DNA of 64,000 bases from Actinomycetota bacterium (GTDB lineage: Bacteria > Actinomycetota > Thermoleophilia > BMS3ABIN01). The position numbers and the translations under genes are program-made. The stretch spans positions 1 through 64,000 of the forward strand of contig JACRMB010000001.1 of assembly GCA_016235065.1 (NCBI GenBank), written 5' to 3'. The first letter of the stretch is position 1. The number at the start of each line of letters is the position of its first letter. This document shows, piece by piece, positions 38,867 to 40,642 of this stretch. The notes below the pieces were generated by a model. It saw only the letters and a program-made list of their open reading frames with translations. It did not search any database and had not been told where the DNA came from.

Positions 38867-38896
38867 TTTCCCTCACCGCAATCTTTGTGGTATTAT
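38867..38896 (+). promoter_or_regulatory. rpsT promoter and leader hairpin
   Basis: TATTAT (38891-38896) lies 18 nt after a poor -35 (TTTCCC, 38867-38872). The leader contains the perfect 7-bp hairpin GCGTGTA/TACACGC with a GAG loop (38905-38921), about 43 bases before the start codon. It might be an S20 autoregulatory site. Confidence 0.45.
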
Positions 38897-38963
38897 TCGC
38901 CCTTGCGTGTAGAGTACACGCGCAGATAGTAATTCAACGCCCATAAACTGTTTGGAGTTCGGA

Positions 38964-39629
38964 TTGGCGAATACAAGGCAGCAACGCAAGCGTGTGAAGA
39001 TCGCCGAGCGTGAGCGCTCGGAGAACCTGAAGTACAAGTCACGGATCAAGACCATGTTCAAGACCCTCACCGTGGCCGCCCAGGAGGACAAGGAGCGGGC
39101 TGCAGCGCTTGGTATCGAACTGATCTCCCTGATCGACAAGGCCGCGAGCCGCGGTGTCATCCATGAGAATAATGCCGCCCGGAAGAAATCCCGCGTGGCT
39201 TCCATCGTCGAGCTTGCCGAAGGCACCGGCAAGGTCAAAGGCCCCGCTACCCGGGATGCTAAAGGCGAGAGCAAGTCGGACAAACGTACCGGCCGCGCCA
39301 AGGCCAAGTCTGAGAAGAAGGCTGCGGTAGCGCTGAAGCAGAAAGCGAAGGCTGAAGCCGCGGCCAAGGCTGAGAAGGCCAAGCCGAAGAAAGAAGAGGC
39401 TGAGGAAGCTCCCGCTGCTGAGGCTGCCGCTGAAGAAGCTCCTGCTGAGGAAGCACCGGCTGCGGAAGAGGCTCCTGTTGAGGAAGCACCGGCTGAGGAA
39501 GAAGCTACTGCTGAGGTTGCGGAAGAACCTGCCGCCGAAGAACCTGCGGCTGAAGAAGCTCCTGCGGAAGAAGCTCCTGCAGAGGCTGAGGAAGCTCCCG
39601 CCGAAGAGGCTGAAGAGAAGCCTGAATAA
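38964..39629 (+). CDS. rpsT: Ribosomal protein S20 with a long acidic low-complexity tail
   Basis: Residues 1-86 are an ordinary S20 of the 30S subunit: (M)ANTRQQRKRVKIAERERSE, YKSRIKTMFK and GVIHENNAARKKSR. The start is TTG 38964 with TTGGAG 6 nt upstream; the frame also extends to 38952. Normal S20 ends at about 86-90 residues, but here the frame continues to 221. A basic Lys/Ala segment (about 95-145) is followed by about 75 residues made almost only of Ala, Glu and Pro. The tail is in frame with no stop, and a strong terminator follows, so it appears to be a real extension. Its role is unknown. Confidence 0.93.
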   Translation: MANTRQQRKRVKIAERERSENLKYKSRIKTMFKTLTVAAQEDKERAAALGIELISLIDKAASRGVIHENNAARKKSRVASIVELAEGTGKVKGPATRDAKGESKSDKRTGRAKAKSEKKAAVALKQKAKAEAAAKAEKAKPKKEEAEEAPAAEAAAEEAPAEEAPAAEEAPVEEAPAEEEATAEVAEEPAAEEPAAEEAPAEEAPAEAEEAPAEEAEEKPE

Positions 39630-39670
39630 CGGCGAGCCCGGAAACGGGCGCTCGATAATGTTGAACCCCC

Positions 39671-39696
39671 AGCGCGCGAACAGCGCGCTTTTTTTT
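39671..39696 (+). terminator. rpsT terminator
   Basis: The perfect stem AGCGCGC (39671-39677) with GCGCGCT (39683-39689) has loop GAACA and is followed by eight T (39689-39696). It lies 42 bases after the rpsT stop. Confidence 0.93.
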
Positions 39697-39814
39697 GCAC
39701 GATTGGCAGCAAACAGACAAACGCAGAATCCGGCCGCTTTTGGTTTCCTGGATATGCATCATGTCCGGCTTCGGCATATACGCAGCAGCGTAAATATGAT
39801 AAAAAAGGTGACTG

Positions 39815-40642
39815 ATGTCAGCTGAAATCGAAAACCTGCTCAAGGAGCGCCGCTACGGCGCTGTTACCGACAGGCTCTATGAGGACCCCTCTCTGGTGGA
39901 GGATCTCGTTGAGCTGCTTGGAACAACTGACAGCAATACCCAGGTAGGGATCCTCAACATTTTGGGGCGGTATGGCTTCGACCATCCTGAGCTGGTCTAT
40001 CCTCACGTTGGCGCGATGATGAGGGCGCTCGAAGAAAACGATGAACTGAAATCGGACGTGGCCTGCGCCCTCGGCAATCTTGTCTTCACCTCCCGCGACA
40101 GGTCAGCCGACGTCATGCCCAAACTATCCGAGCTTTTCCATGAAGAAGACAGCTTCCTGCGGCAGGATGCAGCGGCGGCGATCGGCAACATCGGCTTCAA
40201 TTTCCCTGACCTGGTGGAAAAGGAGATCGAAGGACTCAAGACGATGCTCGATTCTGATGACGAGGACGAGCGGGAGACCGGCGCCCAGGCGCTCGGCAAG
40301 ATCGGAATCAACTCACCAGAAGTCATCAAGGATTCGTTCCCGAAACTGGTCAAGGTCCTGGAGCATGCCAAGGAGGCAAGTTGCGGCGGCATCATCTCCG
40401 CCTTCGGGGCGCTGGGCTATCACTATCCGGAGATGGTTGGCGAGCAGATCCCCAGACTGGTCGGTTACCTCCACAGCTCCAACCAGGTCGCGGTCAAGAA
40501 CGCGGTGATGGCGCTGGGGATAATCGGGATGACTCAGCCGGACCTGATCGAACCTGCATTGCCTGAGCTGCGCAAACTGGCGGAAGATCCCGACCGGGAG
40601 ATCAGGCTTAACGCGATGGTCGCTATCTCAAAAAGCGAGTAG
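39815..40642 (+). CDS. HEAT-repeat protein
   Basis: The 275 residues form about seven helical-hairpin repeats with recurring ALG-x-(I/L)-G and (H/N)-P-(E/D) turns, for example AAAAIGNIGFNFPDLV, ALGKIGINSPEVI and ALGIIGMTQPDLI. HEAT repeats bind proteins; no catalytic motif is visible. AAGGTG precedes ATG 39815. It follows the rpsT terminator and converges with the rhodanese gene (3 bases apart). The partner is unknown. Confidence 0.88.
   Translation: MSAEIENLLKERRYGAVTDRLYEDPSLVEDLVELLGTTDSNTQVGILNILGRYGFDHPELVYPHVGAMMRALEENDELKSDVACALGNLVFTSRDRSADVMPKLSELFHEEDSFLRQDAAAAIGNIGFNFPDLVEKEIEGLKTMLDSDDEDERETGAQALGKIGINSPEVIKDSFPKLVKVLEHAKEASCGGIISAFGALGYHYPEMVGEQIPRLVGYLHSSNQVAVKNAVMALGIIGMTQPDLIEPALPELRKLAEDPDREIRLNAMVAISKSE

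What the first reader, a model, noticed from the sequence alone, without database searches (positions are those of the whole stretch)
38964..39629. Ribosomal protein S20 with a 130-residue Lys-Ala then Ala/Glu/Pro tail
S20 normally ends near residue 86-90. Here the reading frame continues to residue 221: first a basic Lys/Ala segment, then about 75 residues almost only Ala, Glu and Pro, followed by the expected terminator. The basic-then-acidic layout could fold back on the ribosome, mimic nucleic acid, or recruit a partner. The repetitive DNA behind the Ala/Glu/Pro part may also vary in length between strains.
Basis: partly seen in the sequence, partly recalled or inferred. Interest (0 to 1): 0.65.

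Follow-up and report, generated by a model that had tools for sequence, protein, structure and literature searches.

The report
Ribosomal protein S20 with conserved tail
A normally short ribosomal protein (S20) carries an extra basic helix and a floppy acidic tail in every relative of one bacterial order where it could be read and in no other family of its class sampled, so the tail is real and inherited, one example of a known habit of ribosomal proteins, with an untested role.

Summary
Window 38964-39629 (+) is the only rpsT gene of the genome. It has a normal S20 domain (residues 1-~87) and a 134-residue tail in one frame: 56 basic residues, then 78 residues that are 95% Ala/Glu/Pro, followed by a hairpin/oligo-T terminator. 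It is not an assembly or frameshift error. All 18 species of the same order in which S20 was found carry a tail (78-199 aa where complete), while S20 of 39 genomes from other families of the class ends 3-17 residues past the domain. The basic part is homologous across the order: no gaps within the genus, dN/dS mostly 0.05-0.2, Lys/Arg at six fixed positions on one helix face. AlphaFold2 predicts a confident fourth helix (104-138); 140-218 is disordered. The acidic part conserves composition, not length. Other ribosomal proteins of this genome are also extended: S2 (C-terminal), L4 (N-terminal) and L3 (~100-aa insert, absent outside the order). Most likely: an extra rRNA-clamping helix plus a polyanionic bristle on the ribosome surface. 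Function is inferred, not shown.

The parts
38954..38957 (+). GGAG, probable ribosome-binding site of rpsT, 6 nt before the TTG start
   Evidence: read in sequence
38964..39224 (+). S20 domain, residues 1-87 (three-helix bundle), TTG start
   Evidence: PF01649 and TIGR00029 hits; AF2 helices 3-41, 43-63, 68-81 with pLDDT >90; Foldseek best matches are bS20 chains of solved ribosomes
39225..39392 (+). Basic segment, residues 88-143, net +14; contains predicted helix 104-138 with K/R fixed at 104, 108, 111, 115, 118, 119
39393..39626 (+). Acidic Ala/Glu/Pro segment, residues 144-221, net -32, predicted disordered, length variable among species
39627..39629 (+). TAA stop codon
39671..39697 (+). 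Intrinsic-terminator-like hairpin followed by a T run
   Evidence: 6 sites found in region against 2.3 expected; this is the strongest, 7 pairs, 6 of them GC, then T8

Best explanation
This is rpsT, encoding an extended bS20 specific to one order of Actinomycetota. The ordinary S20 bundle docks in the 30S subunit as usual. After a flexible linker of about 20 residues comes a fourth, basic alpha-helix (about residues 104-138) that most likely lies along a nearby rRNA surface of the ribosome through its fixed Lys/Arg face and adds a second RNA clamp. The acidic Ala/Glu/Pro end stays disordered and projects into solvent as a polyanionic bristle, selected for composition and not for length; it may also shield the basic helix while S20 is free. 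Similar charged segments on S2, L3 and L4 suggest a lineage habit of dressing the ribosome surface. Shown: the gene, its clade-wide conservation, purifying selection and a fixed K/R stripe in the basic part, variable length of the acidic part. Predicted: helix and disorder. Inferred: rRNA binding and the bristle role.
For: 18 of 18 species with a found S20 in the order have the tail; 39 outgroup genomes do not. Basic segments of distant genera align above composition-matched shuffles (z 3.1-13.2). dN/dS of the basic part is 0.055-0.175 in 5 of 7 pairs, with no gaps in the genus. K/R is fixed at six positions in 16 of 16 sequences with helical periodicity, p 0.001-0.006. AF2: helix 104-138 with pLDDT about 90, residues 140-218 below 50. 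Similar segments occur in S2, L3 and L4; 4 of 28 r-proteins checked against 0 of 52 other window ORFs, Fisher p 0.013, or 0.037 without S20. S20 is described as binding two 16S rRNA sites (reference titles in PMC10931766).
Against: No structure, binding or proteomic data exist for this organism, and the solved S20 chains found are 119 aa or shorter; sequence matches to them end at about residue 89. Two of seven pairs give weak constraint in the basic part (dN/dS 0.38 and 1.25; few changes). AF2 used only 16 related sequences, and isolated Ala/Lys-rich stretches are readily predicted as helices. The 5' domain of 16S rRNA shows no order-specific indel that the helix would compensate; h44 could not be compared. 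The acidic end is not uniformly acidic in all species.
Confidence: 0.5

Rival explanations
1. The tail is mostly neutral low-complexity accretion: surface ends of abundant proteins tolerate in-frame repeats of Ala/Glu/Pro/Lys codons, and the lineage keeps them because they are harmless. Only a short basic part has been recruited for weak RNA contact, or nothing has.
For: Length of the acidic part varies widely. The order of charges in the L3 insert flips between genera: acidic then basic in g1, basic then acidic in g3 and g4. Unrelated S20 tails arose elsewhere in the phylum. Such regions are common on bacterial ribosomal proteins (PMC6821194).
Against: The basic part is gap-free in the genus, under purifying selection in most pairs, and has a fixed K/R stripe. 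In-register codons of the acidic repeats match only at chance, so recent slippage is not what maintains it. No loss of the tail was seen in 18 species.
Confidence: 0.25
2. Moonlighting histone-H1-like protein: free extended S20 binds DNA or mRNA through its Lys/Ala helix, for example its own mRNA or the nucleoid, and the acidic end tunes the affinity.
For: Lys/Ala-rich composition; H1-like ribosomal tails are known in mosquito RpS6 and RpL23a (cited in PMC11764897); affinities of S20 for its own mRNA have been studied (reference titles in PMC10931766).
Against: No DNA-binding fold beyond one helix, and similar segments sit on S2, L3 and L4, which argues for a ribosomal context. No test was possible.
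Confidence: 0.12
3. The acidic end recruits a defined protein partner (a degradosome, chaperone or hibernation factor).
For: Inference only: an accessible, disordered acidic tail on the ribosome could act as a docking site (disorder predicted).
Against: No conserved motif in the acidic part; acidic length about 22-142 aa by charge split, with some species ending Lys-rich.
Confidence: 0.08
4. Artefact: sequencing, frameshift or assembly error joining S20 to a neighbouring frame.
For: Repetitive DNA behind the acidic part.
Against: Same frame and arrangement in 17 other species of the order.
Confidence: 0.01

Closest known systems
Ribosomal protein bS20 (PF01649, TIGR00029)
   Same: Residues 1-82 match over the full family profile; single copy; own gene with its own terminator; predicted bundle matches bS20 in solved ribosomes.
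   Different: 134 extra C-terminal residues with a predicted fourth helix and an acidic disordered end. Solved bS20 chains found are 119 aa or shorter.
Low-complexity regions of bacterial ribosomal proteins (PMC6821194, 2019)
   Same: Ala/Glu/Lys-rich, C-terminal, expected at the ribosome surface; that study lists L3, S2 and others.
   Different: S20 is not among the proteins that section names. Here a conserved, predicted-helical basic part precedes the low-complexity end.
Lys-rich H1-like tails of mosquito RpS6 and RpL23a (cited in PMC11764897)
   Same: Lineage-specific charged C-terminal tail on a ribosomal protein.
   Different: Eukaryotic, described as Lys-rich and H1-like; independent origin. 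Only the citation was seen.
S20 of G085 (another family of the phylum, L189)
   Same: 87-aa tail, basic then acidic; its linker aligns with those of G009, G010 and G007 above shuffles (z 3.8-4.5).
   Different: No significant similarity to the window's own linker (z 1.2). Homology or convergence is undecided.

Membership tests
Ribosomal protein bS20 | Match to the family profile above the curated cut-off over its length | tested here: met
   PF01649 76.6 bits (cut-off 29.5), TIGR00029 77.2 bits (cut-off 33)
Ribosomal protein bS20 | Three-helix bundle | tested here: met
   AF2 model and Foldseek matches to bS20 chains, TMt about 0.7-0.8, though no match below E 0.001 with the full-length model
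Ribosomal protein bS20 | Only S20 gene in the genome | tested here: met
   one match in the genome
Ribosomal protein bS20 | Incorporated into the 30S subunit | not testable with these tools
   needs ribosome proteomics or cryo-EM
Low-complexity extension of a ribosomal protein (PMC6821194 type) | Ala/Glu/Lys-dominated, low-complexity, terminal | tested here: met
   acidic part 95% A/E/P; a 40-aa stretch reaches 100% A/E/P/K
Low-complexity extension of a ribosomal protein (PMC6821194 type) | Surface exposed | not testable with these tools
   predicted disordered; no ribosome structure
Low-complexity extension of a ribosomal protein (PMC6821194 type) | Conserved across related species | tested here: met
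   18 species of the order
Histone-H1-like Lys-rich tail | Lys-rich throughout with DNA binding | tested here: inconclusive
   only the first 56 tail residues are basic; binding not testable

The most novel reading that the evidence does not exclude
This order has evolved a coordinated polyampholyte coat on its ribosome: S2, S20, L3 and L4 all gained Lys/Ala blocks and disordered Ala/Glu/Pro blocks at solvent-exposed sites, and the coat controls ribosome-ribosome, ribosome-nucleoid or membrane contacts, or ribosome storage.
Probability: 0.12. Interest if true: 0.75.

Novelty: new variant of a known kind. Interest (0 to 1): 0.4.

Why it matters
Bacterial ribosomal proteins often carry charged low-complexity ends whose purpose is an open question. 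Here one such end splits cleanly into a conserved helical part under purifying selection and a length-variable acidic part, is fixed in one order and absent from neighbouring families, and comes with an order-specific insert in L3. That gives a clean natural comparison (tailed against tailless families of one class) for asking what the ends do. If the helix binds rRNA it would be a lineage-specific addition to the 30S core.

Tried and rejected
Read-through or assembly error: rejected by 17 relatives. Recent slippage as the source of the acidic repeats in this genome: in-register codon identity 0.49 against 0.45-0.54 expected; no exact repeat of 24 nt or more. Genome-wide enrichment of EEAPAEE-type coding: not found; at up to 1 mismatch the own genome has 6 matches, all in rpsT, and many genomes have counts like the reversed control. 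Compensation for a changed S20-binding region of 16S rRNA: no order-specific indel in the first ~600 nt (two order members against four outgroups); h44 not available because the order's 16S contigs are truncated. Apparent breaks of the 16S matches are a filter and contig-end artefact: the following bases in G002 are ordinary 16S. A shared tail elsewhere in the own genome by BLAST: none. A long antisense ORF (38873-39712, -) over the tail is expected, because reverse-complemented Ala, Glu and Pro codons cannot form stops. Literature on S20 C-terminal extensions: two incidental papers; bS20 plus extension: mostly mitoribosome and plant papers. The whole genome was not available as a file, so the survey of r-proteins covers 28 proteins.

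Full report
OBSERVATION. The stretch 38964-39629 (+) reads as one open frame of 221 aa from a TTG start with GGAG 6 nt upstream to a TAA stop. Residues 2-82 match ribosomal protein S20 (PF01649 76.6 bits, cut-off 29.5; TIGR00029 77.2 bits, cut-off 33), and this is the only S20 in the genome. The tail has 134 residues: 56 with net charge +14 and then 78 with net charge -32, of which 95% are Ala, Glu or Pro. A hairpin with a T run at 39671-39697 follows.

NOT AN ERROR. In the 19 genomes held for the order, which contain a single family, 17 complete S20 genes have tails of 78-199 aa (the G003 gene includes a masked run) and an eighteenth (G010) is split across two contig ends with a tail of about 142 aa and the same HEAT-repeat gene downstream. 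G011 gave no S20 match and is 86% complete. In 39 genomes of other families of the class, S20 ends 3-17 residues after the domain.

ANATOMY. The basic part is homologous across the order: segments from different genera align better than composition-matched shuffles (z 3.1-13.2). Columns 104, 108, 111, 115, 118 and 119 are Lys or Arg in 16 of 16 aligned sequences, and K/R content has a 100-degree period (permutation p 0.001-0.006); the separately found G010 sequence fits the motif with small shifts. AlphaFold2 with 16 family sequences gives the S20 bundle (helices 3-41, 43-63, 68-81, pLDDT above 90), a weak linker, a confident helix 104-138 and disorder from 140 to 218. Foldseek finds bS20 of known ribosomes for the core.

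SELECTION. Nei-Gojobori estimates for the basic part are dN/dS 0.055, 0.060, 0.114, 0.137 and 0.175 in five pairs, against 0.014-0.114 for the core in the same pairs, without any gap inside the genus; two closer pairs give 0.38 and 1.25, each on few changes. The acidic part gains and loses codons freely. In-register repeat codons match at chance level (0.49 against 0.45-0.54), so recent slippage is not seen in this genome although the amino-acid composition is kept. Ala codons in the acidic part end in A/T more often than in the rest of the gene in all 17 genomes (for example GC3 0.27 against 0.70 here); the cause is unknown.

WIDER PICTURE. In the own genome, 4 of 28 ribosomal proteins checked have a 40-aa stretch of at least 70% A/E/P/K (S2, S20, L3, L4), against 0 of 52 other non-overlapping window ORFs (Fisher p 0.013; 0.037 without S20). 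The threshold was chosen after seeing the data, so the p values are only indicative. The L3 case is an internal insert of 71-110 aa in 10 of 12 order members examined; two members of genus g6 and all 18 outgroup genomes examined have 8-15 aa there. In g1 the insert runs acidic to basic, in g3 and g4 basic to acidic, so for L3 composition matters more than order. L4 has an N-terminal extension in the order except g6; family f3 has its own Lys/Ala-rich version. Elsewhere in the phylum, of about 150 listed S20 matches the 47 with open frames of about 130 aa or more were read: four have tails of 60 aa or more (two Lys/Ser/Thr-rich from one family, one mixed, one basic-then-acidic in G085). G085's linker resembles some order members (z 3.8-4.5) but not the window's (z 1.2), so shared ancestry is undecided.

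MECHANISM. Best reading: the S20 core docks normally, the extra helix adds an RNA contact through its fixed Lys/Arg face, and the disordered acidic end projects as a bristle whose length is not important. Gene, conservation and selection are shown; helix and disorder are predicted; RNA contact and bristle function are inferred. The first ~600 nt of 16S rRNA, which include the 5'-domain S20 site (own knowledge of S20 binding), show no order-specific indel, so a compensation story has no support so far; h44 could not be examined.

KNOWN OR NEW. Low-complexity Ala/Glu/Lys regions on bacterial ribosomal proteins, mostly C-terminal and expected at the surface, are documented (PMC6821194). That section names S2, S16, L25, S3, S6, L3, L10, L17, L19, L21 and L31, not S20. 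This is therefore a variant of a known kind, with a conserved helical part as the distinguishing feature. Literature searches found no report of such an S20 tail, but the library holds only open-licence papers.

Noticed in passing
L119:14593-15498 (own genome C3): Ribosomal protein L3 carries a ~100-aa internal Ala/Glu then Lys/Ala insert; 71-110 aa in 10 of 12 order members, absent in genus g6 and in 18 outgroup genomes; charge order flips between genera.
   Followed up: yes
L215:1126-2166 (-): Ribosomal protein S2 has a ~115-aa Ala/Lys/Pro C-terminal tail.
   Followed up: partly
L119:15527-16381: Ribosomal protein L4 has a ~80-aa N-terminal Glu/Lys/Ala extension; family f3 has a separate Lys/Ala-rich one.
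   Followed up: partly
L125:891-1886 (-) and L122:38-1417 (-): NusA-like protein with an Ala/Glu C-terminal tail, and an iron-sulphur HdrC/QmoC-like protein with a ~70-aa Ala/Glu/Pro N-terminal extension (names from reading, not from a family search).
   Followed up: no
39393-39626: Ala codons in the acidic tract are A/T-ending more often than in the rest of rpsT, in all 17 genomes checked.
   Followed up: partly
L189 (G085): S20 of another family in the phylum has an 87-aa basic-then-acidic tail resembling some order members; homology or convergence undecided.
   Followed up: partly
L160, L167 (G355, G234): S20 with a 62-aa Lys/Ser/Thr-rich tail in another family of the phylum, a different kind of extension.
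   Followed up: no
38873-39712 (-): 279-aa antisense ORF over rpsT; expected from the codon make-up of the tail, not a likely gene.
   Followed up: partly
39815-40642 (+): HEAT-repeat protein downstream of rpsT, also downstream in G010; match to the DVU0298 family below its cut-off.
   Followed up: no
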